This document shows positions 29,512-62,798 of a DNA stretch of 64,000 nt, one piece after another (position 1 is the stretch's first letter; the number at the start of each line of letters is the position of its first letter). The notes beneath the pieces were generated by a model that did not search any database, was not told the DNA's origin, and saw only the letters and a list, made by a program, of their open reading frames with translations. Made by a program: the position numbers and the translations under genes. Origin of the DNA: Siderastrea siderea (taxonomy: Eukaryota > Cnidaria > Anthozoa > Scleractinia > Rhizangiidae); contig OZ034975.1 in assembly GCA_964030785.1 (NCBI GenBank), positions 37,603,069-37,667,068 of the forward strand, in the 5' to 3' direction.

Positions 29512-29531
<20 letters not shown>

Positions 29532-30342: not shown

Positions 30343-30356
30343 AATTTTTACAAGGG

Positions 30357-31663: not shown

Positions 31664-31697
31664 ACTGCACTAAATAGAAAAAAAAGGGCATACTTAC

Positions 31698-34424: not shown

Positions 34425-35960
34425 ACCGCTCGAAAGTATTGGTGCATAAGAACGCGGCGAAACCTCATCCGCCGCCATTTTGTTTTCCTCGAATTTGCCG
34501 CAGTGGGACGAAAACCGCAACCTCGGTAAGGACGAAAGCGACCGATACCGCGGCTGACTTGACGCGGCAATGCCTCGGTAACCAGACAATAGTGGCTAAT
34601 TTCTATTGTTTTGGCATTGTTTATACTTTATCTCACTAATATTCTCAAAGGAGTAAATAGACAAAAGGTTAGCAGTATAATTTCACAAGATTGCGCTTCG
34701 TGATAAAACCGATTTCGGACTCGATCGTGTGCTGTCACGCCGGCTTGACATTGCAGGTGTTTTTATCACCAAGTGCAATTATAAATAAAGAACTTTAAAG
34801 ATCGTGTTTTTATTGGTATTAGATCGTTTAAGGAGAGCTATGAGCAAGCCGATGTATTTAAATGTTTTTCGAGCAAGCCGGTAGTCCGTGCGATACAACA
34901 CGAGAGGTTCTCGTTTCAGACTTTGCAAGACAGCGGGACGAGGTGCCACAATCATAATAGAATGAATTGTCGGGCAGCCGCAAGCAAACTTCGAGCGAAC
35001 GAACAGAAGCTCACACGTTCAATAGTAAAGTAAAACATGTTCTTTATTAAAAAAAAAAACAACAATTTTAGTCGGCGAACCCATGACTATGTGGTGCCAA
35101 GGGTTGCGTGAATATTAATAATTTGCGTGCCGAATGCGAGGTAAGCTAAAATTTTCAGAATTGAAATATGCCTTCACCATACTCAAACATGCCGTCAAAA
35201 GCGAAACTGTTGAATGTAACTTGATGTTAGAAAGAGAATTAGAGTAAAATAGCAAGTTTTTTCCTGAGATTATTTTTAGTTCACGGAGCATTGCACTGAA
35301 TTTGAATTTGCATACTGTGAGTCTCAAAATAAATGTGGGAACAAATCGAACCTTTCTAGATCTTTTGCGCACTTAATCCTTAGATGATAATTGAAATAGG
35401 AAATGAAACTCATGTTGAAACTCAAAGACAATGCCAAGTGTAAAAGAATTTGTAAGAAATAGCGATATACAGCGCGGAGTTCGTTTCAGTTCAAAAGCGT
35501 ATCAAATTTGCATAACGGGTGAAATCTGACCTTTATGGTATGTAATGCAACAATTCTATCTCTATGATGTCCGTTTTATTTCTTCTAGCTGTTGCAAATG
35601 GCACGAGTATCCATTTCTTTCTTCGACTAACGTTAGCGTTCAGCAAAAGTGCTCGGAAGTCACGGTTTGTGAATCACGGTAAAAGCAATAATCATGTGAA
35701 ATCTATCACATCCTAAAATCATCGGCGCGCGACGTCTCGCTTATTGAAGTTAATTAATCTTTGAAACAAAGGAAACAAAAGGCTATTCAAACACCACCGC
35801 GTCCTATTCTTTACCGCGGTATTTTTGACCGCAAAAAACCGAGATAAAACCGGAGTTTTCAAAGAAGTTAGACGGGGTTTTCCCGAGATCAAACCAGAGA
35901 TACAAACTGCGATTCCACCGCGGCAGTATCGCGGAAAATGCACCAATACTTTCGAGCGGT
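34425..35960. mobile_element. 1.54-kb element with 22-bp terminal inverted repeats
   Basis: ACCGCTCGAAAGTATTGG starts the left end and is found inverted at 35939-35960, as a perfect 22-base repeat. Just inside each end are patches rich in ACCGCGG/CGAGATAAAACC. No coding region was recognised. It is about 200 bases from the previous element in the same intron. Confidence 0.75.
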
Positions 35961-36084
35961 ACTGTATGCCATACTATGGCATAATGGCATTTGGATTTGA
36001 AAGTGAAATCATCACTTACTGCATGCACACATTTCCACTAAATCTTCAGTAAAACATACATTGTAGTAAATATAATTAACTTAC

Positions 36085-36339
36085 AAAACACATCAAGACT
36101 GCAAGTTCTAGTGACATTATTGCCAATGCCATTAGATACATGGCACTGATAACTGCCAGCTTGACTGCGATTAACAGCGATTAGCACCAGCTGTTCACTG
36201 CTGCTGAGAGTCACCCCAATGTCTTGGTATATCCAGGTGATGTTTGGTGCTGGGTTTCCAGTGGCATTACAGAAGAGGGTGGCATTACTTCCCTCGGTTA
36301 CTGGACTGGGACAATGCTTGACTGATAATGCAGGCTCAT
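36085..36339 (-). CDS. Ig exon B1 (B-type Ig domain)
   Basis: An 85-codon Ig domain, phase 1-1, GTAAGT donor. It starts EPALSVKHCPSPVTEGSN, with LFCNATGNPAPNITWIYQ and SQAGSYQC. It keeps the extra Cys pair of the B type (VKHC and RTCSLDVF). It opens cassette 2. There is no internal Met near its start. Confidence 0.92.
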
Positions 36340-36845
36340 CTGAACAAGTTTAACAAACAGAAAATATTTTTGGTTTTCCTGAGTTATCCATGATATATAC
36401 ATGTAAAGTTGAATGAAGCAAGAAATTAAAACCTTTTTTTGTTTTTTTTTTTAATTGGAGGCAATTTGCAAAAATTGATCTCTTCTTTGGAAATGCCATT
36501 ACACAAAACATTTTTTTTTAATTGAGCTTCCCTCTGGCCCAGCTGCCATTCACAAAACAGAATACCATTTATTAACTCTTACAGTAGATAACTAGTTACA
36601 GTAACTTAAAATTGTGAACTTGACAAAATTTGCAATGAAAGTACCTTGCTCAGTTATTAATAATTTAAACTTATCAAATGCAGTGAGTGACGTCAGTACA
36701 AATTTGGCTCAACCATGCAGTGTTCCACCATTTGAAAATATTATTGTAAATGTCCAAGTGAATAGAAATGAGACTTCACTCATCATTATCTAGATCACTT
36801 ACAGAACTATATTAATAATACAAAAACATTATTCAAATTGCTTAC

Positions 36846-37100
36846 AAAGCACATTGATGGTGAAACTGGCAGTTGCCGCCTGTCCCACTCCATTCCATGC
36901 CGTGCACTTGTAGCCCCCATGCTGCTGACGTGAGATGTTGGCAATAATGAGGTCCTCTCCCTGATGCAACACTTTTTGATTACCATCTTTTGTCCAGGTG
37001 ATATTGGGTGCAGGGTTGCCAGTTGCATTACAGTGAATGATGATGACGTCGTTTTCAATGACAATCTTATTAGATGGAGCATGGACAATTTTAGAGGGAT
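36846..37100 (-). CDS. Ig exon A0 (I-set domain, cassette 1)
   Basis: An 85-codon Ig domain, phase 1-1, GTAAGC donor. It starts PSKIVHAPSNKIVIENDV, with IHCNATGNPAPNITWTKDG and QHGGYKC. It occupies the A position of cassette 1 but its WTKDGNQKVLHQGE segment looks like the E-H exons, so it may be close to the ancestor of the E-F-G-H cassettes. The intron at 36340-36845 shows nothing else. Confidence 0.92.
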
Positions 37101-37553
37101 CTGAGAGTAGAGATCAGTTGTGTAGCTGTTAGTTAACAGCACTGTACTTGTGTCAACTTAGTACACATGATTGTACATTCTGTAGACCTGCATGTGGAAA
37201 TGCAGCAGCAGTCTCAAAAGCCTAAGTCAACCAAGTGCCTTGCATAACTTAAAGGGGTTATGTGCCTAAGATATCCAGTGGCCTCCACTGTGGTCAACAG
37301 GCCCCCAAATGAACTATTTTGCAGTATTGCGCTTATCACAAACGATGTCTGTTCCATTCATTCAGGTGGTGCCTGTGAGCAAAAAATAATGAGAGCAGAA
37401 AAAAATCAGAAGAAGACTGGGGAGAGAGGTGCCTCTCTCCCCAGTCTCCTCTCATTTTTTGCTTCCCACTCTCAACATTTTTCGCTCATGCACTACTATC
37501 TGAATGCCTAGAACGAGTTCTCGCAAGCTCTAAGCAATGTACATAGCATAAGT

Positions 37554-37738
37554 TAGTGCTTTCAATAAGCACCAACGACTGATGAAAGGCATCTGCAAAT
37601 TTGCTCAAAGAAGTCGGCTACTATTTTCCCTAAACTGAAGTAATTAAAGATTTCTTTCGAATCTTGTTGATAGATACATGTACAGTTGGGAACTCTACTC
37701 AAACCAGCTGCCTACTTCCAATTTTATTGAAATCCCTG
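37554..37738. mobile_element. 185-bp MITE, CAGTGCTTTCAATAAGC family
   Basis: Starts TAGTGCTTTCAATAAGCACC, ends ATTTTATTGAAATCCCTG; the ends are imperfect inverted repeats around TTTCAATAA. Flanked by a 6-base duplication, ATAAGT (37548-37553 and 37739-37744). It lies 26 bases beyond exon D0's donor. Confidence 0.85.
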
Positions 37739-37770
37739 ATAAGTTATGCAATTATAATATTGCAACTTAC

Positions 37771-38037
37771 AATGGACAGTGATGGTAGCATTATCGTTAG
37801 CAGCATTTCCAATTCCATTGGTAGCAGTGCACTGGTAGAGGAGTTCTTCCACAGGTGTACCAGGTCTAGTGACATTTACAATGGTGAAGGCAGCATTCTG
37901 AGACAAAATGACAGGGGAACCAACCAATCTCCATGTAATGGAAGGAGAGGGTATACCAGATGCATTACACGTCAGAGTTACATTATTAGCCTCTTCAACA
38001 AATGCGGACACTGGTGAGACTGAAACTTGTGGTGGAT
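37771..38037 (-). CDS. Ig exon D0 (longer D-type Ig domain)
   Basis: An 89-codon Ig domain, phase 1-1, GTAAGT donor. It starts PPQVSVSPVSAFVEEANN, with LTCNASGIPSPSITWRLVG and the D signature RPGTPVEELLYQC. The upstream intron (38038-42248) contains a Tc1-like element. Confidence 0.93.
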
Positions 38038-39266
38038 CTGAAAATATTCAACGTACAAAAAAATTGCGTGTCAGCAATGTGTCAGCAAACGGTTGAAGAA
38101 AGCCATTAAATACACCGTTGGTGTCACTTATTATACCATCGTACAGCCTCACTGGCACAATTCTATAGGAAATGCACAAATTGGGATCTGAGGTGTGTAG
38201 GGTTGGATGGATTCCCGGGATGGATTGACGCGAGCCACTCCAAACTATCCTGACCCATCTCTTCAAAATTTTCCAACAAAGTTAAGCACAAAAATGGTGG
38301 AATGACAAAATACTTATTGACTGAATTACAGTTAGGTCAGGCTTGACAGGAAAATAACTTTTCAGCTCTCGGACATGGCGAACAATTACCTCACTGGCTT
38401 AAGCACAACATTTTCTTGTCTGGCCCTCACTCAGTCAATAAGTACGTATGATTTAATGAGCACATTCTGCAGGCAAATGACCTAAACTATTGCTGTGATC
38501 GAACTTAGTACTGTACGCAACAGGTAAAGATGAGTTCAGCTTGTTGATTGTCAGGCTCACAATTCTGCAATGTGTTAATCAGAAACACTCGACAATACAT
38601 GATGGTCCTCTCCTTTAATAAGCAAGATTGGTGCTCAAAAAACTTCCAATTGCCAAGTGACACATACACTGCAGGTCCAAAAGATTCTTTTTCTAGATTT
38701 TCCTAAAAATAGTTTAACTGCCCTGCAGATAAGAATTATTTGTAGTAATGAACAAATGCTAAAACTTGGAAAAACTCTCAGACCTTTCCTTCTTAATGCT
38801 CAACTAAATGCAATTGAAAAACATTAGCAGAACAAAGCCTGAGGGGTCCTCATTACAAATTTTACCTCCAAATGCATAGTGTTTTCCCGTTTCAATCATC
38901 TTTACAGGCCTTTTACGACCGGAGTTATGACTTTTTATAAACTTGTGGTGATTAAGTTTTCGATGACTAGGAGGTCTGTGATCGATAGGCTTGCGATAAA
39001 AGGAACTCAGTGAATTCAACTCGCTTCGCGACAACGTGTCCCTTACGGTATTATGCGGCCTCTCGCAAGAAGAGTTTCTTTTCTCTCGGGATGAGACTCT
39101 CGTCTCTCGCGACAAGAATTGCATCTCATGAGAGGGTGGTAACTTACTTTTGAGCGGTACTGTAATGTCCTTGAATCAAAAGCCAATTAAAATGCTCTTT
39201 CCATTTTTTTTTTAATGTGGCTGCCAAAGGCTGATCAAATCCACTCTCAGCACATCTAGGCACTTA

Positions 39267-42158
39267 CAGTACCGGTCAAATGTAAGTTGACACTCTCGAC
39301 TCGATCCTGGAAACTCGATTCTTGCGTCTCGAATGTCGAGACGTTCGAGTTTTGAGACACGAGAATCGAGGATCGAGAATCGAGTATCGAGAATCGAGAA
39401 ACAAGGAGTTTTCGAATATGCAAACTCGAAAAGAACTTTGAGAAAACGCTTTGTTTCTCGAAGAATGAAGAATAGCCATTCGTAGGCCCAGTTAAAACAT
39501 TTAATAAACATCGACTTTCAGCGCGTATATTATGTCAACTTGCGTATAGGCATGAAACAACACGAATGAACGATAGCAATATCCGGATATCTATAAATCT
39601 TGAAATTCAGGAAATTGAGTCCGCTTGGTATTTGTGAATATACCTCGAGTTCCCTTTACATATACACAGACAGAAATCCATTTTCCAAAGACGGTGAACG
39701 TTTAAAAGCGATTAAAGAACCTCACTGTTCAATTGTTATTAGACAAACAACAGTGTGTGTGCATGAGATACAGTCGTTCGCCTATCAGAGTCCATCGCAG
39801 TTCAATCTTGAGTATTCGCCAATAAGTATAAATCTATAGGTTAAAATTAATCCACGAGATCGAGAATCAGAGAAACGTGAGTGAATTTGACTGTTTTATT
39901 TCCATATTTTCTATTAATTTCAAGTGTTCTTGTTGTTTTGCATGTTTTTAACGGGGATAAAGAGAAACGAAGTCGATTTTTTGGCCAATGCAAACAATCA
40001 GTGTACGGGCAATGTGCCGCCCAGGGTGGCGAAATTTTTGTGCATTTGACTGGAATAGTTTGCCCGTGAGCAGGGAATTTGACGGCAAATTTTTGAAAAA
40101 TGTCAAATCCCCACCGCATGCCCTGCCTTCCCCCCCCCCCCCCCCCGCCAGCTTTAAATTGATGGGTGCATTAGGCCGAAACCCTTCCAATGCCGTGCAA
40201 GTGAAGTCGCGTTTGTTTATTTGGCGAACTACACGAATAATACACAGAACCTGTCATAAAAAGAAAAAGTAATGAATGAAACTGATATAAAATGTCACAG
40301 TTTCGAAGTTTAATACACATTGTCATTTCTTCGGTGATAAATAAGAAGTGATTTATGTTTTACCCTACGCATGTTAATTTGCATACGTCAGAAGCGAAAT
40401 TTGAAACCTCATACAAAATATGCGTAACACAACGATGCTTTTGATGCAACTCAGAGTTTGACAGTCGTTTTGCCTTTCTGTTTCACGTGTAAATGTGTAA
40501 ATTAAAAAATATTCAGAAATTTAACATCGCTTATATAAAGCTTGTCACTACGCTGAGCCCGTGAAATGCCTGTTTTACGTAACAACTGGGAAAAGCTTGA
40601 GTTGCAGTTTTAGAGGGACTTTTAGGGGCCGATTACATGAGGCGGGCTGGCCCGGTTAGCCGGGACCTTCTGGTACATCTGTAAAACATATTAAAAATCA
40701 ACTTTGTGATTACATGGAAAAATCTCAGCCCGGCTAGCTGGGATCCCGGCATCGTGATGCCAGGATCTCGGCTAGCCGGGCTGAAAATTTACCACGTAAT
40801 CGTGATTGCCGGACCAACACTTTCTCGGTATTTAATTTCGCTTCAGAACAAAATAGCTCACCAGAAGATCGATTTTTCTCTTTCCATATAACACATAATG
40901 GTTTCTCAGACCATAAAGCTACATAAAACTGAAAATAATACACCAAAATAATGGATTAGCGAAAGTAAAAGCACTCGATTCATGCTCTTTGATGTAGCCA
41001 TCTTTTCAGACGACAGCTTCTAAATTTAGCCGCAGCCGGGCTGGCCCGCCTCAAGTAATACCGGCCTGAGCAGTCATCTCGGTAAACCTAACCAGCCCTG
41101 CTACCGAGCCAGCCCGGCTCATGTAATCGGCCCCTTAGTAAATTTATACGGTCGGGCGTTTCCTCAAATAACCGTTTTGAGAATTATCGCAACAATTTCC
41201 GCAAGCATATAAAAGTTTAAGTGGATAATCCAACCTATGAGGAAAGGCGCAGCGAATTCTAAACTCATGTGTATCATTTGTCATTATTTGATCACATGAA
41301 ATGGCGACGCTTGCACCACATTTTTCGAAACACTTGTTGGATCTGTAAACAATAAATTAACACCGCTCGCGATCAAGTTTGGTCCATTTGTCCGATTTAT
41401 TTCTTGAGATCACTCAAGCGACAAGCTCATTAGCTTCTAGACTCGAAACTCGATTCTCAATCCTCGAAATTCTCAAAACTCGACTTGAGACTCGATTCTC
41501 GAAATTCCAGACATTTGATTGGAAACATTGAACGTCGAAGCCTAACAGTTGTAGCTCCAAACTCCTCTAATCATAGTGCTGACCTTCGAATTCCATCTGT
41601 AGATAGCATTTTAAAGAGGATGCTTGTTTATTTGTCTTTAATTGTCTTCATGGTAATGTGTGTAACGCTTTCAAAAACTATATCGCAAAAACTAACCATG
41701 CTCTAAATACCAGAAACAATCAATCATCTGTACAGCTGCCAAGGATGACACTGGAGATTGGCCATCAAAGTTTTATTTTTAAGCTGCCCTATGTTTTAAC
41801 TCTTTACCATTAGACATTAGAAGACAAAACGCTAGACTTTTATTCAGGAAACAGCTTAACAAACATTATTTTTATGTGTTGAACAAATTTTTCATCCTCA
41901 CCTACTTTATTGAATTTTATAATGAGATTTTAGACCTTAGATTAGGCTTTAGATTTTAGTTTTTAGATTTTAGATTTTTAATATTTGGCTTTTTTTTTTT
42001 ACGCTTTTATGTTGCAGGACCCCATTAATAACAGTGCTTATGTACTGAAGGGTTATCCTGTTAAAATATTTGCTTATTATTATTATTATTATTATTTGAG
42101 AATCGAGAATCGAGTCTTGAGACGTGAGGGACTGTCAACTTACATTTGACCAGTACTG
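39267..42158. mobile_element. 2,892-bp Tc1-like non-autonomous element
   Basis: Starts CAGTACCGGTCAAATGTAAG after TA; ends with the inverted copy (CAGTACTGGTCAAATGTAAG read inward) before TA. Ends and TA target are typical of Tc1/mariner elements. Subterminal arrays of CTCGATTCTCGA-like units follow each end (39290-39400; 41440-41510 and 42098-42130). No transposase was recognised. A separate MITE is nested inside at 40621-41138. Confidence 0.85.
40621..41138. mobile_element. 518-bp MITE with GGGGCCGATTACATGAG termini
   Basis: AGGGGCCGATTACATGAGGC at the left is inverted at the right (GCTCATGTAATCGGCCCCTT). Interior has GC-rich palindromes of AGCCCGGCTAGC and a second pair of TTACATGG/ACCACGTAA. 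Nested in the 2.9-kb Tc1-like element. Confidence 0.85.
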
Positions 42159-42248
42159 TAAATGTGCATGTAGGGTCAATGAGATCAGCCAATGGCAAAC
42201 ATAAAAATTTTACATTAAAATTATTCACATCCCACTTGGTAAACCTAC

Positions 42249-42509
42249 CAACAACAGTTAAGTTGACAGCTGCACTTTCACCAATCCCGGCACTGTTGAG
42301 AGGCATACAGGAATAAACACCACTGTTACTTATTTGCAGGTGGTAAAACCCGCTGACATTACGGCCAAGGAGCACTTGGTTGTGGAAAAATAAGTATTCG
42401 TGTGCAGGCGGATGTGACATGGTGGTGCAGTTGAAGACAACAGTACTGCCCAGCTGTACTGCACTGGTGTTTGATTTGTCCAATGAGAGTTTGGTATTCT
42501 CTGGCTTGA
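42249..42509 (-). CDS. Ig exon C0 (Trp-less Ig domain)
   Basis: An 87-codon Ig domain, phase 1-1, GTAGGT donor. It starts KPENTKLSLDKSNTSAVQLG, with FNCTTMSHPPAHEYLFFHN and NSGVYSC. As in C1-C3, the core Trp is missing and the AHxYxFF/AHLYYFY pattern replaces it; the MPLNSAGIGESAAVNL end matches VPINTVGTG in the others. Most diverged of the C type. Confidence 0.9.
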
Positions 42510-43254
42510 CTGAAATGCAAACAAAAATACCTCAGTTTGTAAGAAAAGATGTATAGGTAGGCCTATAGCCTGTAGAATCACAAGGCCCCATAATTTGTAA
42601 CTGATGCATTAAAGAGAAGGACAAAACTAAAAGGCAAAATTTCCACCCAACTGATATTAGGTTCATGCACAAAGCCAACTGTTGACTGTGGAGTTTCTTG
42701 CACATACATACAGAGAACCCATGGCATGATGCCATAACCAGCCTGAAACCATTGACCTATGATATTGCAGTTGCATACATGTACCTGCCAACCCTATAAA
42801 ATCAGAAATAGGGACCACCCCCCCCCCTCATCCCAGCCCTGGGGTAGTGCCCTGCCCCTAACAATGAACAGGGTCCAGGATGCTCCACGGTTTTGCATTA
42901 ATTTTTAAAAATATTGCCTGTACATACTGTACTGTTTTAGAATTAGAATTCTCAGGTGTTGTCTATAATTCTGGTCTAGAGCACTACATGTATTGCACAA
43001 AACAGTAGTATTTAGAAGAGTCAAGAGCAATCTCGAACAACCCAGTTCCAAATTTTTACAAAAGAAAATGTATTTTTTCCTCTTGAGAATCAGAATGTCC
43101 CGATTATTTTAGGTTTTGAAAGTAATAAAAAGGACAATTTCGATTAAATCAAGATGGTTGTCAGGTATGCAGTTAAGGTGTCAACTACAAGAGAGGGGGG
43201 CTATTAAAAGTCCTTACTTATTAATCAAACAGTAAAAAATGACATCATACATAC

Positions 43255-43500
43255 ACTGCACTTCAAGGTAAGCACTGGCATTAACTGTCACATTTAAGCC
43301 ATTATCTGCAGAACACACATAATGTCCTGACTGATTCCTGTAGACAGGAAAGCTCAATGTGACTCCATAAGCCAGTGTGCGTCCGTCTTTGAGCCACGTT
43401 ATGTTGGGTGTGGGATTACCAGAGGCACTGCAGGAGAATGTCACTGTCTCTGTTTCATTAACGGTCTTGTTAGTTGGTGTGGAAGTGAAACTCACTGGAA
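43255..43500 (-). CDS. Ig exon B0 (first visible Ig domain)
   Basis: An 82-codon Ig domain, phase 1-1, GTATGT donor. It starts PVSFTSTPTNKTVNETET, with FSCSASGNPTPNITWLKDG and RNQSGHYVC. The RNQSGxYVC segment places it with the B type (RNESGSYVC), though it lacks the extra Cys pair. It is the most 5' Ig exon recognised; upstream exons may exist but were not found. Confidence 0.9.
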
Positions 43501-44130
43501 CTACAGAACCATAACATTAAAAAATGTAAGTATAGAATGCACCTGAGGGCTTGAAATTTTCATCTTCAAACTCGCAAAATGTCAGCAGTGTTAAGAAGTT
43601 GGGAGTTGAAAAACATTCCCTGCATTTTTTGCCTGTACTCATACATGTATATTTCATATAGGGTGATCTTTGCTGACAATTGTTTTGCATTTTGCATTTA
43701 GAAATTCACCCAATAAACAAAAAGATATCACTAGAAAAAGCACATAAATTTAAGTTACCGTGCCATTAATTTTAGGGAAATGGGTGGAGACTTGCTTTAA
43801 GCGATGCATTAAAGAGTTTCAGCATTTATGTGGCTGGGTGAAAACTCTTTTAATACAGCCAAACAAATTGTATATTTTATGCAGTATAAAACAATGGAAG
43901 AGGTACACTAGTCCCATGTACATTTACATGCAGAAGAAAAGGATTTAATTGTCCAAATAAAATTTCTACTTGACAACAAAGAAAGAAAAAATATCCCTAG
44001 AGCAAACATGTGCAAATGAGCATTTGTCTGCTAGAATTTGCAGAGAAAAAGCAAAGGTTTTGGAGAATTTTGTAGCAAAAAAAGAATGAAACATGGGAAA
44101 CTTTAAGCTCCAAAAGAAATAAGAAAGATG

Positions 44131-52821: not shown

Positions 52822-53082
52822 CTAAAATGAAGTTTCGTTGTTGTTTTCTCCAATCCCGTCTTTGTTTGTACCTTGAGCCTGCATCTCAGGATCTGCGCAA
52901 TCATCAGTCTTAGGCGAGACATCCCCCTTACGAAACTCCGTGATATCAGCATACTCCGTGCCTTCATATGGTGTTGGCCTCTTAAGTGGAGGCAGAGGTT
53001 GAGGAGACGTGGATACTTGCGGCATCCGTGGCATATTTATACCTTCCAAGTCCGCATAAATCACCCCTTCAGGATTGGGTTG
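52822..53082 (-). CDS. Cytoplasmic tail 2, terminal exon (ITIM + ITSM-like)
   Basis: A phase-0 acceptor (ACCACAG) opens 86 codons plus stop. It reads GVIYADLEGINMP, a VxYxxL ITIM-type motif near residue 9, then STSPQPLPPLKRPTPY with a PxxPxK SH3-type site, then GTEYADITEF, a TxYxxI ITSM-type motif about 34 residues after the first, and an acidic/Asn-rich end. Such an ITIM plus TxYxx[VI] pair is the layout of inhibitory tails such as Siglecs, which recruit SH2 phosphatases; here that role is inferred. It pairs with exon 54529-54862 and is paralogous to 61826-62095. Confidence 0.85.
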   Translation of the reverse strand, partial: QPNPEGVIYADLEGINMPRMPQVSTSPQPLPPLKRPTPYEGTEYADITEFRKGDVSPKTDDCADPEMQAQGTNKDGIGENNNETSF

Positions 53083-54528
53083 CTGTGGTAGGTAGATACA
53101 AATTAATAGTCAAGATTGGTTAACGTCTCCTGCTGATGTTAATAGGGAGCTGAAGCAACCAATACGGCAACGCAAAGGAAAACGTCACTTTAAAATGACT
53201 TCACAATCTCTTAAACTTCTTGACGATTATTCCGACTCGTTTAATTTGTCTAATGTAGCTGAACTATCCAGGAGCTGAATTTGCAAGGACGGCGTTCAGT
53301 TCAGGGAGAAAACGAAAATTCACCGTCGTGTTTTCACGTTCTGCACAAAACTTTCAATTCGATCATTTCACGTCGTTGTTTTGAGGAGGACGGCAAATAA
53401 ATGTACCAAAAAGCATAACGCACTTGCAGAGTCATTGTTTTGCTAATCAAAGCTACTGTTTTGTGACGTTCTCGTCAGCCGTTGCCGTCGTGTTTGCTTA
53501 AGCTCCCTAATGAGACAACCACAGATTTACCAGTCTTTGAAATAAAGAGTTCTTTTGTCACAAGGGCCCGGCTAAACGGAATGAAGTTCATTAACTGCCG
53601 AACACAAGTTTGTTGTACGACGTTGACTGAGGTGGCCAAAAGAATTCAGCGTGTTGATCGCGTTTGCCACCCTTTTGAGTGATTTTGAATGTTGAACCTG
53701 CAATTGTTCAACACTGTTCCACATCCCGGCCAAACGAACAAACACGGTTTGTTTGTTTTTTTTTTTTTACATTGTTTTTCACACCTGAGAACAAAAGAAA
53801 AGTTGAATAGTCTTAAATCGAAAGATGGCAACATCATTCAACAGGGTGACTAAACGCGTTCAACAATTGCGCAGTACTCTCCTTGGTGATGTTACGTTTA
53901 TTGCCGCACATGGTGGTTCTTCCAGTTTAAAAGTTGCAGAGTCTAAATTAATTCCGAAAAACATGGCTCCTAATTTTTGTACAGTTTAAGCAACCATACA
54001 AATGCTGGAGAAGTGAGTACCGTTAATTTATGCCCTACTAACGTGCTCATTCAGATAATGTTTACTGATAACAACATTCTCGTGATACTCGTATTCTACT
54101 CTGCTCTTGAACCCTGAACATTTACTATTGAAATGGACCCTGAATGTTGAACGTTCCTGTGATACTGTTTGTTACTCGAGAGAAATAAGAGTGACATTTA
54201 TCGTGATTTATAAAACGTCTATTTTCTCCAGTTAAACTCAGGAGCTAATGACTGGGAGTGAAAGAGGAAACAATAAATATTTCATTCTGGAGGATTAACA
54301 TTCGACTCTATGGATAGGCACTTCGCTCAGGGAAAGTCTCACAAGAACACATGAGTGCAACCCACACAGTTGAGTGAACAGACCCCGACCCCCACCCCCC
54401 CCCCCCCAACGTTTTTCGCATTTTAGGTGAAGTTCACTCACCCTTGCAGACTCTCTTCTTGCTCAACTTTACCTGAGCGAAAAGACGCACTTAAGTCTAG
54501 AAAGAAATGAACCTATCCACGACCATAC
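53083..54528. other. Intron of tail 2, 1.4 kb
   Basis: Contains a copy of a repeat with TTCAACA and CAGGGTGACTAAACG (about 53,640-53,870), related to 55,760-56,075, and a poly-C run near 54,394-54,407. No exon is clearly supported. Confidence 0.5.
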
Positions 54529-54862
54529 CTTCTTTATAGATTTCTTTGACTTGTCGACTTGTGCGTAAGTATCGTCTGACTGCTTCTTCGTCTGAGATTT
54601 GTCCACGACAGAATTCCCAGGAGACTTTTCCTCTTCTTTCTTCCTCTTGCTCTTCTTCGTGGACTTGTCTACAGCAGCATAAGTCGGAGGGGCTGCCGCT
54701 GCCTGCTGATTTGCTGCTGCTTCATGCCTGTTTGCGTCTGGTTTCTGCTGTCGGACAGCACCATCAGTTGCGTTTGCAGGTGCCGGTCCTGATACTGCAT
54801 ATTTGTTGTTGACTTGGGCATTAGTATTATCCTCAATGCCAAACTGGACATCTTGTCTGGAA
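54529..54862 (-). CDS. Cytoplasmic tail 2, penultimate exon (YAxVDKS modules)
   Basis: Acceptor TATTTCAG, one base completing a split codon, then 111 codons and a phase-0 GTATGG donor. It reads SRQDVQFGIEDNTNAQVNNK, an Ala/Gln-rich linker, APPTYAAVDKSTKKSKRKKE, a tyrosine-less module (NSVVDKSQTKK) and DDTYAQVDKSKKS. The Lys-rich stretches suit a cytosolic segment. Two Tyr-x-x-Val sites remain. If the donor is not used, the frame runs to a stop at 54469 with a short hydrophobic end. The preceding (membrane) exon was not found. Paralogous to 62546-62798. Confidence 0.85.
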
Positions 54863-55858
54863 CTGAAATATCCAATCAATAAGCGCCTGTTACACTCGGC
54901 AGTTGGAATTCAGTGCATGTTACTGATATGAAGAAGAAACAAGTTGGATGAAATTTTCGATGGAGTTTTAAAAACAAAAAGTCACCCAGAAAAAAAAACT
55001 ATCATTCTACTGAGTTTTAAAAACAAAACGTCAGCCAAAAAAATAATAATAAAAAGACAGCGCTTCCTTCCTTTCACATTTGCATATCGATGTGCAAATA
55101 CAGGGATTTTATGGCAAGTCGTTGACTCAGGCGTCCTCTGAAATAAACAAGCTTCACTATATCATAAAGAAGAGAAAAGATAAATATTGCCACAGCGATA
55201 AAATGCAATTTTCTTATTCTTTAACAGGAAATTACCACTCTCTCAGCAATGGTCGTAGAACAGGTACATGTTGCTTGTCAGTTGTTTACGCATGCACTTT
55301 CAGGGGACTCCGTTTTCAGAGGCCCAAAAAACGCTTTTTTACCGATACAAACGTTAAAACTTCGTTTGCTTATGTTTATACCGCATTGATTCCTAGTGAA
55401 GTACACCTAAGTCCTTCTCAGGACTACACTCACCCGGACGATCACAATTTACCGACTTAACATAAGAAACAGTTTGAACGCTTTCAATGTGCTTCTGCTT
55501 AGATCACCAGTAAAGACCAGTGAGGCAATCTAAAAATTAATCAAGATTCATGCCAGAATAATGACGGCACAAAGTTACAGTGCAGCCTCACCCCTGGGCA
55601 TGAGGTATAAAGCATGCAGGAACGCTGGCACACACCTCTTTATTAGCGACAGAACGGTGTTACAGTAACCATATCACCTATGCTTCGGTTTGCTAAACGA
55701 CGCTGCTGAACATCACCGAATTGGTTAGTTATTTTCCAGAATTCAAGTGTAAACATTATTCAACATTTGAATACAACGTTGGTGTATGACGGTCAACTAC
55801 GTGGCCAATGAATTCAACACTGTTGCTCATAGCTGGGAAAAAAAAATGAATCAACATC

Positions 55859-56038
55859 CAGTGCTTTCAATAAGCACCGACAGCCGACGAAAAGCGTCGG
55901 CTATTTCGCTTAGAAAAGTCGGCTACTTTTTGCCCTAAATTAAAGTAATTAAAGGAAGATTGTTTCAAACCCCTAGTTGATACAGTCGGTTACTCTATTC
56001 AAACCAGCTGCCTACTTCAAATTTTATTGAAACCCCTG
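55859..56038. mobile_element. 180-bp MITE, CAGTGCTTTCAATAAGC family
   Basis: Starts CAGTGCTTTCAATAAGCACC, ends ATTTTATTGAAACCCCTG; flanked by AACATC on both sides (55853-55858 and 56039-56044). It is inserted into another repeat whose intact relative is at 53.6-53.9 kb, so both borders are clear. Confidence 0.88.
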
Positions 56039-56084
56039 AACATCATTGATCAGGGTGACCAAACGTGTTTAACATATAAAGGAT

Positions 56085-56222
56085 ATTACACGGCGGCGTG
56101 AAGATATGAATTTTATTTTCGAGTAGCTAAAACAATATTACGAACGAGTGCATCGAGTAAATTATTGTTTTTTTTAACCACAAGAAAAAATAAAATTCGT
56201 ATCTTCAAGTCGCCGTGTAATT
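56085..56222. mobile_element. 138-bp MITE with ATTACACGGCG termini
   Basis: ATTACACGGCGGCGTGAAGA at the left is mirrored by TCTTCAAGTCGCCGTGTAAT at the right, around an AT-rich core. Same family as 17511-17645. Confidence 0.8.
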
Positions 56223-56233
56223 TTCTTTCATTA

Positions 56234-56620
56234 TCAAGACAAGAGTATTCTTTCACAAACAACAGTGTAAAAGCAGGAAATGACATCATCGATATCCTCA
56301 CTAGCTAGTAAGGATAGGAAAATACGCCACCCGAGTCCCGGATGAAGTTTTATATGAAGTATACGAGCGGTCAATTTTCCACCATAACACTCTAGTCTAT
56401 ATAATAAAATGTATTTGACAATGTTGAACGGTGTTGATTGGAAATATTGAGCCCGGTTGTCCGTGCAAATGTCAGTTTCCACTGCAGGAACATCACTTTC
56501 GATGCGATTGTGAGGACAAAGCAGCAACATCCTCGTGCCCAGTGCACTGTCCGCGCGGTACCGCCTTTTGGTAGAGAAGATGGCGGGGTCCTGTAAAACT
56601 TGATACTGTTCTCCTATCAT
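56234..56620 (-). CDS. Unrecognised 128-codon open frame
   Basis: An open frame next to a MITE, with sequence such as YGGKLTARILHIKLHPGLGW and EDIDDVISCFYTVVCERILL. It could be a fragment of a repeated element's protein; I do not recognise it. No splice sites or promoter were evident. Confidence 0.2.
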   Translation of the reverse strand: MIGEQYQVLQDPAIFSTKRRYRADSALGTRMLLLCPHNRIESDVPAVETDICTDNRAQYFQSTPFNIVKYILLYRLECYGGKLTARILHIKLHPGLGWRIFLSLLASEDIDDVISCFYTVVCERILLS

Positions 56621-56631
56621 CTTTTAACCCT

Positions 56632-56833
56632 TAAAGCCTTAGCATAATTGCACAAATTCTCCTTACTGATCTCTATACATCTTAAGTATTAGTTGGGAGA
56701 ACTTAGTAAAACATCAAGACAATTTGTCTTTACTGATCATTTCGTTAATTCTCATGACCTTTAAGTGCTAAAATGCACTGATATGATGAGGTAAAGTTTG
56801 ATGCTGATAACTATTGGGGCTTAAAAGGTTAAA
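56632..56833. mobile_element. MITE, TTAACCCTTTAAG family
   Basis: Starts TTTAACCCTTAAAGCC and ends TTGGGGCTTAAAAGGTTAAA, with the family interior CACAAATTCTCC and TTCTCATGACC. Confidence 0.75.
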
Positions 56834-57207
56834 ACCGCCCTCGCAAGATTTTGATTTCGCGTAGGAAAGTCTCAAAGTAATAACATACTCGTTCACCATT
56901 TACCAAAAAATACCGAAATGGAAGAGAAAAGACTTATTTGGATTGCCCCGACAGAAAATTCTCAACACAAAAGATCTAAAATTCCCACATGGGAATATGC
57001 GAACCATTTTCATTTTCTACCATTCCTGGTTCGTTCACAAATTCTTGACCGTTTGGATGGGTCCCAGTTAAGTTCTTGGCTTCTCGAGTAGATGGAACAA
57101 GAAATCTCTCTTCAACGGGAATGTCAGTTGGGAGATTTTGCATTTCATAAACACAAACTATGAGCCAACCGCTTTCTTTGAGTAAATGGTAAACCACCCA
57201 AACTTTC

Positions 57208-57420
57208 TTAACCCTTTTACTCCCAAGAGTGCCAAAAATCAAAATTGAAGACAAATCCCAAATTTCATTTTGTAAATTACTTAAATATAAATAGTACCAC
57301 GTGAAAGTACTGCTGAAGAGATTTTATTTGAATGGTCACACCATAGGATTTCATCCAAAGACTCAGAAGTTAGAACCACCTATGTGTTTCCATAACTGAC
57401 TCTGGGAGTGAAAGGGTTAA
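57208..57420. mobile_element. 213-bp MITE with TTAACCCTTTTACTCCC termini
   Basis: TTAACCCTTTTACTCCCAAG at the left is mirrored by CTGGGAGTGAAAGGGTTAA at the right. A sister family to the TTAACCCTTTAAG elements. Confidence 0.8.
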
Positions 57421-59989
57421 CTGTAATAAGTTTCTTTCAATTATATGTGCACTGGGTTAATACGTGTGTATGGTATCAATATAAATAACGGAACACGTAC
57501 GCATTGAATGTGACACAAGGAAATGGAGTTAATCAGCATTTATTAGGCACTAATTAATGTTGGTTACATGATTAGACTACGAAAATGCATTAAACAATAA
57601 GAAACAAGTGTGGCAGAAGACCTTCACAACGCGAGAGAAACGAAAAAACAAAAACAGGCTGTTGGCACATTAAACTGGATCGTGTTCTCGATGGATGTAG
57701 AGCATCAACTCCGCTGTATTGGTTACCAAACTAGCTTCTCTAATGGCGACGTTAAGGATGTTTAAAACTGAGTAAAATGAAATAGAAACACTTCAAAATA
57801 TTGACAAAATGTCGTCCTCCTTTGCCGTTTTTGTTTGGGGTATTTGAGGGTTACGATAGCGGTTTCTCAAGCTAACATTGCGGAAACAAAATTCTCTTTA
57901 AAAAACCGCGATCGCAACCCTCAAAACAACACAACACAAAACAACAAAGGATGACAACGTGTTCATATCTTTTTAGTGTTGTTATGTCACTTTACACACC
58001 CCTACTTCGTCTTTAAAGAGGTTCAAGTAATTTGATAACCGAGGCACAGGACCCGAGTCAACCAAGATGGTAGGTCTGTGGTTTCATTCTAGCAACTTTC
58101 CAGATTAGACACATCTTCGCTTCCAAAGGCGACTGCCACACATTTTACCCTGTTGTGCGTTGATTTTCAAACTCAGAAATCAAGCAGGGTTACATGGTTA
58201 ACTGATTAACACAGTATGATGGGCTACAATATTAAAATCAAAGATTAAATGATTGACGTAACTTTGTTAATATTAGTTACGACTGAAGTTAGCTTCACAG
58301 GGCAGGAATTTAAGCAATGACTACTGTTTTCTTCATAACCATATCGTACTGGAATCCGATACTCTGTGATTTGTGTTCGACACGACTTTTTTCTCTTTAT
58401 TCTTAGCAACTCATATGGTTACGTAACAAACAATCGTTCGCTCAAAAATGAAATTCACTTCGTTGGAAAAATTGCCCTCAGGTTGTCTGGCCAAGCCCAT
58501 TAGAACCTTAATATGCCGACTAGCTTTTTAGGCCCCATTGCACGATTTAGTTAAAACAATCTTGGGATGGCGAGTACATGCGATTGATTCCAAACTGATA
58601 CAAAAACAATCAAAACCACTGAATGAAACTTAGCCCACAAAAGAATTATCAAAATCGGGGGCAAAACTCCCACGTTTTCGTCACCAAACAGTCTTATATC
58701 ATTGCTTCACAATTTTCCTGCCTGAGAAACTAACACGGATACTACAAAGCGTATGCATTAATCGACGTTAAACGTCTTGTCAATACCGAATAACATTTAA
58801 GTGTATTATTTCCCCATTAAGCTACAAAACACTTTTATGTTTCTACTGAGATCTTACAATACTTGCGTAAACAGGTGTACAACGCAACCGAATCGTTCAG
58901 TATTTCTCCACAGTGGAGGTTTTTCTCTCTCTGCAGAATCATTTAAAACGTTTTCTCTTGCTTAACTGAAATCCTACAAAAACCCTGATGTTTTGACATC
59001 ATATTAATTCCCATCGTAACACACAAACACACCTCATACAAAACATTCTTCACGTTTCTTCATAGTTCTAGAAACCCTTGCGTTTCCAAGGGGAAAAGCA
59101 CGAATTCTTACAGAGTCTGCTTCTGTTACTCCAAAGAAACATCCAAAATGTTTTATATGGCTGCAATACTAAGGCTATCTTGATGTTTTGAACATCATGT
59201 GCAAATAAAATTTTAAATTTTGTAGAACTGTTTTCCTTTTATCGTTAAGAACCCAACCAAGTGCATCTCCGAAAGGAAATGCCAGGAAATGACTTAAAAT
59301 AAACAAATACAAACGGGAAGAATGCAGTGTACTAAAAAAATGTATACAAACAACAGAACCAAAGAGTGAGATTAAAAAACTGAATGTATAAAACAAAACT
59401 AATGACGATGGTTATTTGGACAAGACCTCCTCTCTAGGGACCCCTGAAATTCCTTCCCTCTCCCCTTCGAATTTTTCCGCTCCACCTATCTCTATCCCCT
59501 AATAGAAGAGGGGTTTAAAAGGACACGAAAATAATTTTTTGGGAAACTTGTAGACTTAAGAAAAGCTTTTTTTTCAAAATGGACAAAAACAAAACACAAC
59601 TGTTTTCAAATCTCAATAATTCTTGAACACTTTGATGAAGGTTCAAAAGGAATCGAGGAAAACGTTACAGGTAAAATTGCTATGTACGCCCAACTACATC
59701 TCGGATAGGTAAGTGTGCTGGACTTATATTTTTTTTTCTTCGTTTTGTTCTACTTTCTACTTGCCAAATACTGCAAAACATTACTGAAAATTGTATAACT
59801 GAGGTCCACGTCGGTACGTTTGGACCCTACATTCATTCAAATTCTTATTCTCGTTTCTATTATCTACATTATAGATCATGAGATTTAACCAATTAATGAG
59901 TATTCTCCAAATCACGTGGCTTTCCAGACAGGCAGATATCTCTACTGTCCTTTGCATGTAGCCGATACAAGGATTGCCATAACCCCTGG

Positions 59990-60110
59990 ATGGAATGCAA
60001 CTTCATCGTAGGATTTCTCCGACACTTTCGTGGGTACCCATTTTTGCGCCTAAGTGAAAGCACAGTGTGAAGTTTATAGGTGTCTTGTCTAAGAACACAA
60101 CACTTGGGAA
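59990..60110. mobile_element. SINE-like fragment
   Basis: TGGATGGAATGCAACTTCATCG and GTCTTGTCTAAGAACACAAC correspond to the body of the SINE at 19930-20160. Diverged. Confidence 0.45.
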
Positions 60111-61825
60111 GCGACCCACCCACTAACTTAAACAAAGCACAAGAGTTGCAGACAAACAAATGTTAAATATACTGGGACAGCTTAAATATTAACTGGTTCA
60201 CGCGCTTTAAAACAAGGAAGTCCTCTTTCTAAAGCTAGTCCAAAAGAGGTACGGACAAACTAATGTTAAATATACTGGGACAGCTTAAATAACAGGTTCA
60301 CGAGCGTTGAAACAAGCAAGTTTTGTGTTTACACCTAATCTATGACTTGACTAAGAGAGGTACCACTACAAAATCTGCATATGTGGGCAGAGATCGCAAA
60401 CTTGTCATCAACTAGTTTCTTGACCCCCATAAACATGGCCAAAAGCCCTACTTTGCTTTGTTTCCTACAATCATGAGCTGCGATTAAATGATGGTTATAT
60501 ATGTTGCTTAAAACGTTTAGAAGTGCGCTGTTATCCTCTACAATGAAAAAACCCACCTAAGTTAATACACACCGGCGGCAAGACAGAGAAACGTGAACCG
60601 AGAAACGTCACCATAACGACATTTCGAAACTGGAATATGCCCCCACGCAACTTCTAATGACGACACGAACTGTCTCTGCTACAGTTTTATGTGCAGATTG
60701 CCAAATGTGTTCTGGTCATGTCAATAATAAGTTGTGAGTTGCAATGAGGTCTACACTAAAAAAGCCCTGCAACCTCGGATCTTCTGACATTTCAGAATCA
60801 CAGAAAATGAGCGACACGAACAGTTTGCCCTTTTGTCCCGAAAAATGGATGGTATCGGATTAGACAATTTATTCTCCTGTATTTTCTGCTGAAATTTTTG
60901 TTAAAGCTGTCTTTCATAACGGTTTGCTATGAGACATACTAGTCCTTGTCACACTTACTAGAAGGGATTTGCTCGTGTCCAAGCAAGAAGTGCGTATTTG
61001 AATCCGCACTAAGGCAACTAAAGGTATCTTGAAGGACTCTTTGAAGACGTGTGGTAACTAAAACAGTAACCACTCCCTCCTACTTTGACCTTTTGGCCAA
61101 ATGTGCTAACTTTCTACTCAGGTTTAAGAATTTGTTTAGACTTTTACACATTCATTTTTTAATTCCTGAAAATTAGAAACTGCTCGTCAACAATCTATAC
61201 CAAAGTCTTTCATGAAACGGGCACGGTAAACAAAGCAATTGAAAATTATCAAATTTAGATGCCGCTCTTAGAAAATGAAGACAGAAAAATGTACAGTTCT
61301 ATACAAAATAACAAGTTATCTAGATGCAATCAAGAATTCAAGGATATAAAGTATAATTAGATTTGAGTGGGTTAGAAACTAATTATAAAAAAGTAATAAC
61401 AATAACAGTGCTTATAAAAATATTTAACGCATAATCTATAATTCTACTTACTATTTACCACATCTATAAAAATAAGCAAGCCATAAAAGACTGGTTCTAC
61501 TTATAGAAAAACTACTAGCACACACCTATTTCATTTAACGTTGTCGAATTCCAAGCCTGTGCGACAAGATCCCCAGCAAGGTGGTATGGGTTTTTGATAA
61601 GACCAGTAATGTCTCGCTCGAATAGAAACGAAAGCACGACAGGAAACGTTCACGATGTTTTCTCAAACCGTTTTATCGCACTGAACGCCGTGAAACGTAC
61701 ACCTCTCACAGCTAGCCATACCACCTTTTCCGTCCTATGAGCTTGAAATGTTTATCCGACAACTATAATTGAAATAGCTGTACAACTTTCAAAGGAAGAG
61801 CAAAGAGTAAACACTAGACCATGAA

Positions 61826-62095
61826 CTACAATGGAGTATTCCTGTCTTCTCTAGCTCCATCATCGTCTTTGTTTGCACGTTGCGGCTGCAACTCGGTGCC
61901 TTGATTGCTACCACTTTGAGGTAGGGTAGCGTCCCCCTTCAAAAACTGCGTGATGTCTGCATATTGAGTGTTTTTGTACGGGTCTGGCCTCTTGATTGGA
62001 GGCAGAGGTTGGGGTGAAGTGGACACTGTTGACATGGGACGTGGCACATTTATATCCTCCAAGTCTGCATAAACCACTTTCCCAGACTTGGGTTT
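61826..62095 (-). CDS. Cytoplasmic tail 1, terminal exon (ITIM + ITSM-like)
   Basis: A phase-0 acceptor opens 89 codons plus a TAG stop. It reads KPKSGKVVYADLEDINVP (VxYxxL), STSPQPLPPIKRPDPY (PxxPxK site) and NTQYADITQFLKG (TxYxxI), then an acidic polar end. The spacing and motifs match tail 2 closely, with the same proline-rich stretch between the two tyrosines. These motifs are those of inhibitory Ig-receptor tails; whether they are phosphorylated here is inference. It follows exon 62546-62798 after a 450-base intron with no other feature. Confidence 0.87.
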   Translation of the reverse strand, partial: KPKSGKVVYADLEDINVPRPMSTVSTSPQPLPPIKRPDPYKNTQYADITQFLKGDATLPQSGSNQGTELQPQRANKDDDGAREDRNTPL

Positions 62096-62545
62096 CTTGA
62101 TAAATGAAAAGTATTTTGAATCGTTTCACCGTACATGGGGTTATGGAAATTTAGTGTGACCAACTACTAAGCTATTAGTGTAACTGTGATGCTGTTTTTA
62201 ATGTGATTATTAAAAAAAAAAAACATTGACCACCAGTCCCTTCCTAAGCGGCTGTTTATTCTGCTGTTTATTTTGCTGTGACAAATTTCTAACGTGTAAC
62301 CTTTCAAGTGAGAGCTGTCGAGCAACATTTTCCTTTCTGCTTCTTTTTTGTTTCTTTCTTCTTTTTCTCTTTTTTTTAAACCTACGTGGAACGCAATTCG
62401 TACAGGTGGGAAACGCCAACTCAAACGCTCTCATTTCTACATGACTGCTGACTTCAGTGTACGTTTGATTTGCCCTTCTCGACTATTCCTAATCCGAAAG
62501 GGACAAAATACGTTTAGAATGATCACGTCCTTTCGAATAATATAC

Positions 62546-62798
62546 CTTCTTAGATTTTTTTGACTTGTCGACTTCTGCATACGTGTAGTCTAGTTTCTCC
62601 TCCTTCTTCTTCTTAGACTTGTCGACTTCTGCATAAGTAGGAGGGGCGGCTGCTTCCTCTTGGTGTGATGCAGCGTCACGTCCATCTGCGGCTGCCCTCT
62701 GCTGTAGTGCAACAGCCTCAGTTCCGTTAGGTCGCGGTCCTGTCCCTGCATACCCGTGATTGACTTGGGAATAAGCATTATCTTCAGCATTATCATGC
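62546..62798 (-). CDS. Cytoplasmic tail 1, penultimate exon (YAxVDKS modules)
   Basis: Acceptor TTTTCCAG, one base completing a split codon, then 84 codons and a phase-0 GTATAT donor. It reads HDNAEDNAYSQVNHGYAG, an Ala/Gln/Glu-rich linker, APPTYAEVDKSKKKKEEK and DYTYAEVDKSKKSKK. It has three Tyr-x-x-Val sites (YSQV, YAEV, YAEV). Entry phase equals that of 54529-54862, so both could splice to the same upstream exon. That exon, presumably the membrane segment, is not in view and may be right of the window. Confidence 0.87.

What the first reader, a model, noticed from the sequence alone, without database searches (positions are those of the whole stretch)
52822..62798. Two paralogous tail cassettes with Siglec-like ITIM + ITSM layout
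Each tail ends with V[VI]YADL, then PLPP[IL]KR, then T[QE]YADI about 34 residues later. In vertebrates an ITIM followed by a TxYxx[VI] motif marks inhibitory or switch Ig receptors that bind SH2 proteins. Finding this pair in a cnidarian next to a large Ig array, with two copies in tandem, suggests an innate recognition or allorecognition receptor cluster comparable to the Hydractinia Alr family.
Basis: partly seen in the sequence, partly recalled or inferred. Interest (0 to 1): 0.88.

Follow-up and report, generated by a model that had tools for sequence, protein, structure and literature searches.

The report
Coral Ig-receptor tails with paired ITIM/ITSM
A stretch of what is probably stony-coral DNA encodes two versions of an intracellular receptor tail with the tyrosine switches used by inhibitory immune receptors, and related corals carry the same kind of tail on immunoglobulin-domain proteins, which makes it a testable candidate for how corals recognise self or microbes.

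Summary
On the minus strand, tail B (62798-62546 + 62095-61826) and tail A (54862-54529 + 53082-52822) share a two-exon structure and acceptor phase. Each carries four or five YxxΦ sites, ending in an ITIM, LPP[IL]KR and an ITSM, 36 and 35 residues apart. In 26 related hexacoral proteins (25 with Ig domains) the ITIM is kept in 26, the ITSM in 24, and spacing is 35-36 in 26 of 28 pairs.

Two corrections. (1) The neighbouring Ig array lies downstream of both tails: a separate hemicentin-1-like gene starting near 43.5 kb, its own tail outside the window. (2) I found no convincing transmembrane or ectodomain exon between B and A, and four of four Ig-class Montipora relatives carry two tails in one chain. 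So B and A are most likely tandem tail cassettes of one receptor whose ectodomain lies beyond 64,000.

Most likely mechanism (inferred): phosphorylated ITIM+ITSM recruits a tandem-SH2 protein such as SHP2. Siglec or Alr membership is unproven; allorecognition is speculative. New variant of a known kind.

The parts
62546..62798 (-). Tail B, exon 1 (phase-2 acceptor, phase-0 donor): YSQV, TYAEVDKS, TYAEVDKS
   Evidence: Splice borders and frame; tblastn to Stylophora P0009, 45%, E 5e-4
61826..62095 (-). Tail B, exon 2 with stop: VVYADL (ITIM), PLPPIKR, TQYADI (ITSM)
   Evidence: tblastn to Acropora P0004, 52%, E 1.5e-19
54529..54862 (-). Tail A, exon 1 (same phases): TYAAVDKS, TYAQVDKS
   Evidence: tblastn to P0004, 34%, E 9e-6
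52822..53082 (-). Tail A, exon 2 with stop: VIYADL (ITIM), PLPPLKR, TEYADI (ITSM)
   Evidence: tblastn to P0002, 45%, E 4e-15
62060..62077 (-). Tail B ITIM VVYADL
   Evidence: [SIVL]xYxx[ILV] met
61952..61969 (-). Tail B ITSM TQYADI
   Evidence: TxYxx[VI] met
53047..53064 (-). Tail A ITIM VIYADL
52942..52959 (-). Tail A ITSM TEYADI
61988..62008 (-). Tail B PLPPIKR, fits a PxxPx[KR] SH3-ligand pattern
   Evidence: at this place no related protein keeps the PxxPx[KR] form, only LPP[IL][KR] or LPAIKK in the Ig class
52978..52998 (-). Tail A PLPPLKR, same pattern
61828..61830 (-). Possible phase-2 donor ATT|GTAGTT (exon end 61830) overlapping tail B's stop; would fuse B to A at about the place of the Montipora junction (hypothesis)
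   Evidence: score 4.6, highest of the 19 GT listed in 62095-61800; the scoring matrix is crude
3..43507 (-). Neighbouring, separate gene: hemicentin-1-like Ig array, 24 Ig units in the window (22 intact, 1 split over frames, 1 cut by the window edge)
   Evidence: first Ig 66% identical to residues 21-103 of Pocillopora P0027

Best explanation
B and A are two tandem cytoplasmic-tail cassettes, each a terminal pair of exons, of one stony-coral Ig-superfamily receptor gene on the minus strand. Its Ig ectodomain (Ig-SEA in some relatives) and transmembrane exons lie upstream, beyond position 64,000. The tails are built either joined in one chain (as in Montipora) or as alternatives. The receptor works like a vertebrate ITIM/ITSM receptor: Src-family kinases phosphorylate the YAxV/YADL/YADI sites on engagement, and the ITIM and ITSM, held 35-36 residues apart, bind the two SH2 domains of an SHP2-type phosphatase (or another tandem-SH2 protein), damping or switching the cell's response. 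Shown here: exons, motifs, conservation, linkage to Ig domains in relatives. Inferred: one gene, double or alternative use, phosphorylation, SH2 partner, inhibitory sign.
For: Tail homology to hexacoral Ig proteins: 23 hits, best E 1.5e-50; one search adds P0024-P0026. ITIM kept 26 of 26, ITSM 24 of 26, spacing 35-36 residues in 26 of 28 ITIM-ITSM pairs although the linker differs between the two ectodomain classes. Both window tails share exon structure and acceptor phase, so either could follow the same TM exon. Between them: no Ig, no match to tail-bearing relatives, best TM-profile match E 4.9, no Pfam family above cutoff in the 8 ORFs tested. Four of four Ig-class Montipora proteins (P0001, P0024-P0026) carry two tails in tandem. 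Constraint between A and B: dN/dS 0.32 (exon 2) and 0.35 (exon 1), NG86. SHP2/Csw homologues are reported from Hydra, Amphimedon and choanoflagellates (PMC7260276, passages).
Against: The ectodomain and TM of this gene are outside the window, so the single-gene claim is by analogy. Ten hydrophobic segments (KD >= 1.7) do lie between B and A; none has the relatives' HKKRKC border, but one at 55202 is followed by a moderately basic stretch and has possible phase-2 donors, so an own TM for A is not excluded. Exon 2 dN/dS is 0.53 by YN00, and YN00 gave no value for exon 1. The YAxVDKS sites are mostly not strict ITIMs. The possible fusion donor at B's stop is non-canonical (+5 is T). The best tail identity is to Stylophora (64% over 23% of the query), and both Stylophora relatives have single tails. 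No transcript, phosphorylation or binding data.
Confidence: 0.6

Rival explanations
1. Two separate receptor genes in tandem: A has its own, unrecognised ectodomain and TM between 61.8 and 54.9 kb.
For: Separate stops with AATAAA/ATTAAA after each, though such signals are frequent in AT-rich DNA; ten hydrophobic segments in the interval, one at 55202 with a moderately basic flank; such receptors are multicopy in corals.
Against: No Ig, no TM-profile match better than E 4.9 in the interval, no Pfam family above cutoff in 8 ORFs tested (one PipX match at 15.5 bits against a cutoff of 25), no match to relatives; the same Ig profile found 22 intact Ig domains elsewhere in the window.
Confidence: 0.15
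2. A is an orphaned duplicate of the 3' end of the B gene, no longer used.
For: No convincing ectodomain near A; A lacks one YxxV tyrosine that B and some relatives have (NAQV for YSQV).
Against: Open frame of 197 codons with consensus acceptor and GT donor, dN/dS 0.32-0.35 by NG86 (0.53 for exon 2 by YN00), YADL and YADI tyrosines kept.
Confidence: 0.12
3. The tyrosine sites are mainly endocytic (AP2 YxxPhi) or activating (Src, Grb2 or PI3K docking) rather than SH2-phosphatase sites, and the protein is an adhesion molecule of neural-CAM type.
For: Database names of relatives include NCAM, DSCAM and hemicentin; YxxPhi also fits AP2 (recalled); the Ig/FN3 class has ITAM-compatible spacing in 12 of 12.
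Against: Neither window tail and none of the 14 other relatives has ITAM spacing; a strict ITIM followed by a strict ITSM at nearly fixed distance is not expected of endocytic signals.
Confidence: 0.22
4. The tails belong to the Ig array in the window.
For: Adjacency and same strand; array Ig domains are 35-48% identical to ectodomain Igs of tail-bearing P0009; 2 of the 90 proteins found with the array's Ig domains, P0009 and P0024, bear the tail.
Against: The array is 3' of both tails; its first Ig matches residues 21-103 of P0027, so the gene starts after tail A.
Confidence: 0.02

Closest known systems
Hexacoral 'hemicentin-like' or unnamed Ig proteins (Stylophora P0008/P0009, Montipora P0001/P0024-P0026, Acropora P0002-P0007)
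   Same: Same tail: YAxVDKS repeats, [VIL]xYA[DE]L, LPP[IL][KR] or LPAIKK in most, TxY[AT][DE]I at 35-36 residues
   Different: Window: two cassettes about 7 kb apart with two stops; Stylophora and Acropora relatives have one tail, the four Montipora ones two fused. The window's ectodomain is unseen.
Hexacoral Ig/FN3 'NCAM-like' proteins (P0010-P0021)
   Same: Same ITIM core and ITSM; spacing 35-36 in 10 of 12 (38 in P0016, 26 in P0021)
   Different: Most end in extra Tyr sites (PTYxN[VI], then [VT]xYSN) with ITAM-compatible spacing; lack LPPxKR
Hydractinia Alr family
   Same: Cnidarian IgSF membrane proteins; ITAM/ITIM motifs reported on Alr candidates (PMC12065747, passages)
   Different: No sequence relation tested; no hydrozoan among the 23 hits; polymorphism and allorecognition role unknown here
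Botryllus fester co-receptors (FcoR)
   Same: Ig membrane proteins with ITIM, hemITAM or YxxPhi tails; oligomorphic loci can splice one motif for another (PMC12065747, passages)
   Different: Chordate, V-Ig/sushi/C2-Ig ectodomain; no homology tested
Vertebrate CD33-type Siglecs, PD-1, PECAM-1
   Same: Membrane-proximal ITIM followed by distal TxYxx[VI] (recalled)
   Different: Spacing there about 18-25 residues (recalled) against 35-36; extra YAxVDKS sites; sialic-acid-binding V-set not seen
Crustacean Dscam alternative tails
   Same: Ig receptor whose tail exons and stop codon are chosen by splicing (PMC6851185, passages)
   Different: Penaeus Dscam has a predicted ITAM but no ITIM; different gene

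Membership tests
ITIM/ITSM-bearing IgSF receptor | Cytoplasmic ITIM [SIVL]xYxx[ILV] | tested here: met
   VIYADL and VVYADL; also 26 of 26 related proteins
ITIM/ITSM-bearing IgSF receptor | ITSM TxYxx[VI] distal to the ITIM | tested here: met
   TEYADI and TQYADI; 24 of 26 related proteins
ITIM/ITSM-bearing IgSF receptor | Ig ectodomain and TM in the same chain | tested here: inconclusive
   Ig domains in 25 of 26 relatives and a hydrophobic segment before the tail in the aligned ones (13 of 26 aligned, P0021's short); in the window ectodomain and TM are beyond 64,000 or absent
ITIM/ITSM-bearing IgSF receptor | Phospho-dependent SH2-phosphatase recruitment | not testable with these tools
   Needs biochemistry
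ITAM receptor | Yxx[LIV]-x(6-12)-Yxx[LIV] | tested here: not met
   0 of 2 window tails; 0 of 14 relatives without FN3; 12 of 12 Ig/FN3 relatives do meet it, P0021 at another place in the tail
Siglec | N-terminal V-set with sialic-acid arginine (recalled) | not testable with these tools
   Ectodomain not in the window
Hydractinia Alr family | Sequence homology to Alr ectodomain or tail | not tested
   Alr sequences not obtained; key paper not held; no hydrozoan among the 23 hits, but that search was limited in length and candidates
Hydractinia Alr family | Allelic polymorphism linked to fusion or rejection | not testable with these tools
   One haplotype only
Classical hemicentin (the array's database name) | N-terminal VWA and C-terminal G2F domains (recalled) | tested here: inconclusive
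   Porites relative P0030 shows Ig, EGF (just below cutoff) and SEA in Pfam, no VWA or G2F up to E 0.05, and ends in a hydrophobic segment and short tail; the window gene's own C-terminus is outside the window

The most novel reading that the evidence does not exclude
Stony corals have a chromosomal complex of Ig receptors sharing one tyrosine-switch tail core, in an ITIM/ITSM-only form (Ig or Ig-SEA ectodomain, the window's type) and an ITIM/ITSM plus ITAM-like form (Ig/FN3 ectodomain). These act as opposed inhibitory and activating recognition receptors, and tandem tail cassettes let one ectodomain change its signalling strength by splicing: an anthozoan counterpart of Alr, FcoR or NK paired receptors.
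Probability: 0.18. Interest if true: 0.9.

Novelty: new variant of a known kind. Interest (0 to 1): 0.62.

Why it matters
The review passages I read describe candidate allorecognition receptors for Hydractinia and Botryllus; I saw none named at this level for corals. ITIM and ITSM occur together in at least one Ig protein of each of ten stony-coral species and one sea anemone, 35-36 residues apart in nine of the ten corals (38 in Porites harrisoni, 26 in the anemone). That gives direct candidates for self/non-self, microbe or symbiont recognition and a simple biochemical test: does the phosphorylated tail bind coral SHP2? The two-cassette layout adds a possible way to change signal strength without changing the ectodomain.

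Tried and rejected
Tails as part of the in-window Ig array: rejected by gene order and by the match of the array's first Ig to the N-terminus of P0027. A hidden ectodomain or TM between the tails: homology, TM profile, Pfam and hydrophobicity scans gave nothing convincing; this is negative evidence, ten hydrophobic segments do exist there, and of the ORFs in that interval only eight (plus two upstream of B) went to Pfam. PDB search with tail A: two chance-level hits, E 0.71 and 0.78. Pfam on tails A and B: one weak match each, far below cutoff. A weak SCIMP match to P0009 (22.3 bits, cutoff 27) was not used. SH3-ligand reading of PLPPxKR: fits PxxPxK in the window, but that form is not found at this place in any of the 26 relatives, so I do not lean on it. 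Donor scoring for a B-to-A fusion: the matrix comes from 21 Ig-exon donors with coding bias and scores the real tail exon-1 donors at -2.4 and -1.2, so its 4.6 for the stop-overlapping site is only suggestive. Own-genome search did not complete, so the rest of the gene could not be fetched. I did not predict structures.
Full report
WHAT IS THERE. Each tail is two exons with matching borders: B = 62798-62546 and 62095-61826 (173 aa to the stop), A = 54862-54529 and 53082-52822 (197 aa). In both, the first exon opens with one base that completes a codon (phase-2 acceptor) and the intron between the two exons is phase 0. B carries YSQV, YAEV, YAEV, YADL, YADI; A carries YAAV, YAQV, YADL, YADI. 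The ITIM-to-ITSM tyrosine distance is 36 (B) and 35 (A). Exon 2 of A and B align at E 9.6e-25. Residue shuffles give the combined motif set in 2 of 20,000 (A) and 1 of 20,000 (B).

WHAT IT BELONGS TO. A database search with both tails gave 23 proteins at E <= 10 (21 of them at E <= 1.5e-4, best 1.5e-50), from ten scleractinian species (genera Acropora, Montipora, Stylophora, Pocillopora, Porites, Oculina) and the sea anemone Actinia tenebrosa. A second search from the Stylophora tail listed 8, of which three Montipora proteins were new. Both searches scored only the roughly 8,000 candidates sharing most words, in a limited length range, so absence elsewhere means little. Of these 26 proteins 25 carry precomputed Ig-family domains. 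Of six tail-bearing proteins scanned with Pfam, SEA is above its cutoff in P0001, below cutoff in P0004, P0007 and P0008, and not listed in P0009 and P0014. P0010-P0021 carry fibronectin type III domains (PF00041) and P0023 sushi and HYR domains (PF00084, PF02494; the last two names recalled from the accessions).

CONSERVATION. The ITIM consensus is kept in 26 of 26 and the ITSM in 24 of 26; Acropora P0022 and P0023 have lost the ITSM tyrosine. Spacing is 35 or 36 in 26 of 28 ITIM-ITSM pairs; the exceptions are 38 (P0016) and 26 (P0021). Several of these are isoforms or paralogues, so the counts are not independent. The linker is proline-rich with LPPxKR in most of the Ig class and different in the Ig/FN3 class, yet nearly equal in length; I read this as constraint on distance, as expected if both sites engage one tandem-SH2 protein (inference).

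TWO TAIL SUBTYPES. ITAM-compatible spacing occurs in 12 of 12 Ig/FN3 proteins (in P0021 at another place in the tail), in 0 of the 14 others and 0 of 2 window tails. The window tails are of the ITIM/ITSM-only subtype.

THE IG ARRAY IS ANOTHER GENE. An Ig profile built from the window finds 24 units between 43507 and 3 on the minus strand and none from 43.5 to 64 kb. Ig exons are flanked by symmetric phase-1 introns: a phase-1 acceptor was seen for 22 of 22 exons listed and a phase-1 donor for 21 of 22 (none in the range scanned for 32793-32533). Transcription runs from high to low coordinates, so the array is 3' of both tails. Its best relative, P0027 of Pocillopora verrucosa (50% over 100% of the query), aligns its residues 21-103 to the window's first Ig at 66%, so the array gene begins near 43.5 kb. 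P0027 ends within an EGF-SEA-like region; Porites P0030 continues through SEA and a hydrophobic segment to a tail with neither ITIM nor ITSM. Results that blur this: the array's own C-terminus is beyond the left edge and unseen; 2 of the 90 proteins found with array Ig domains (P0009, P0024) do bear the tail; and two distant anemone relatives (P0034, P0039, 30-31%) end in another tyrosine arrangement, TEYA[HA]V then LYAEL. I looked at the C-termini of 25 of the 90 hits (P0027-P0051). The array's Ig domains are 35-48% identical to those of tail-bearing P0009, so it may be a cluster neighbour, but by gene order it is not the ectodomain of these tails.

ONE GENE OR TWO. Between B's stop and A's first exon I found no Ig, no match to the tail-bearing relatives, no TM-profile match better than E 4.9 (best anywhere in the window 0.18) and no Pfam family above cutoff in the eight ORFs tested there. 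Ten hydrophobic segments lie in the interval; none has the relatives' HKKRKC border, but one at 55202 has a moderately basic flank, so this is not proof. All four Montipora proteins of the Ig class (P0001, P0024, P0025, P0026; P0001 and P0026 look like isoforms of one gene) carry two tails in one chain. Their junction follows KETPI, which is also the C-terminus of several single Acropora tails; I set that cut by eye. The six Ig/FN3 Montipora proteins have single tails. In the window, the best-scoring GT in B exon 2 is in the phase needed to join A and overlaps B's stop, about where the Montipora junction falls. It is a weak site and the matrix is crude. I conclude that B and A are probably tandem cassettes of one gene (about 0.65), either fused or alternative. 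dN/dS between A and B is 0.32 (exon 2) and 0.35 (exon 1) by NG86; YN00 gives 0.53 for exon 2 and failed for exon 1.

MECHANISM. Shown: motifs, spacing, conservation, Ig linkage in relatives. From the literature (passages only): SHP2/Csw homologues in Hydra, sponge and choanoflagellates (PMC7260276); ITIM/ITAM motifs on Hydractinia allorecognition candidates and on Botryllus FcoRs, some of which swap motifs by splicing (PMC12065747). Inferred: Src-family phosphorylation, SHP2-type recruitment, inhibitory or switch output. The runs of lysine after the YAxVDKS sites could hold the tyrosines at the membrane until needed (speculation). V-V-pY-A-x-L also fits the SHP2 N-SH2 preference as I recall it (no call).

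LITERATURE CHECK. Ten searches of the held open-access library listed no title or abstract that I could recognise as describing this tail;'s 947 papers only 20 were listed. 'immunoreceptor tyrosine' with 'scleractinian' gave one 2007 review, seen only in the listing; 'hemicentin-1-like' with 'coral' and 'immunoglobulin' gave none. I read passages, not whole texts, of seven papers. The main Alr paper (Huene et al. 2022) is not held, so this is not proof of novelty.

POSITION IN THE GENOME. In Montipora foliosa seven of seven tail-bearing hits sit on a contig of one length (44,110,093), in M. capricornis three of three (50,241,759), and in P. verrucosa both tail-bearing hits and the array relative P0027 (26,381,493). 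Against this, the six Acropora muricata hits fall on two contigs (1,515,440 and 36,246,318) and the two Stylophora hits on two short ones. It fits a linked family but is not a map.

SOURCE. No hit is near-identical (best tail piece 64%, Stylophora; array 50-58% to Pocillopora and Desmophyllum), so the species is probably a stony coral not annotated in that database (inference).

ON CHECKING.

Noticed in passing
window 43507-3, minus strand: Hemicentin-1-like gene with 24 Ig units; several late Ig exons (10864, 4009, 2525, 1925, 933) look very alike, suggesting recent tandem exon duplication.
   Followed up: partly
window 5070-4800, minus strand: One Ig exon is split over two reading frames: a frameshift, extra small intron or assembly error.
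   Followed up: no
window 50855-50986, 52465-52643, 56078-56228: Three self-complementary (palindromic) stretches of 130-180 bases, MITE-like, around the tails.
   Followed up: no
window 60138-60221 and 60241-60321: Repeat pair of about 84 bases, 84.5% identical, between the two tails.
   Followed up: no
P0010-P0021 (database proteins): Ig/FN3 coral and anemone proteins named NCAM, DSCAM, Lar or even '39S ribosomal protein L41' share the tail core and have ITAM-spaced tyrosines.
   Followed up: partly
P0022, P0023 (Acropora muricata): Two proteins with the same tail on different ectodomains (one with sushi/HYR domains) have lost the ITSM tyrosine (TDHAKI), possibly a decoy or decaying tail.
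   Followed up: no
P0034 (Actinia), P0039 (Nematostella): Anemone 'hemicentin-like' relatives of the Ig array end in TEYA[HA]V followed by LYAEL, a different tyrosine arrangement.
   Followed up: no
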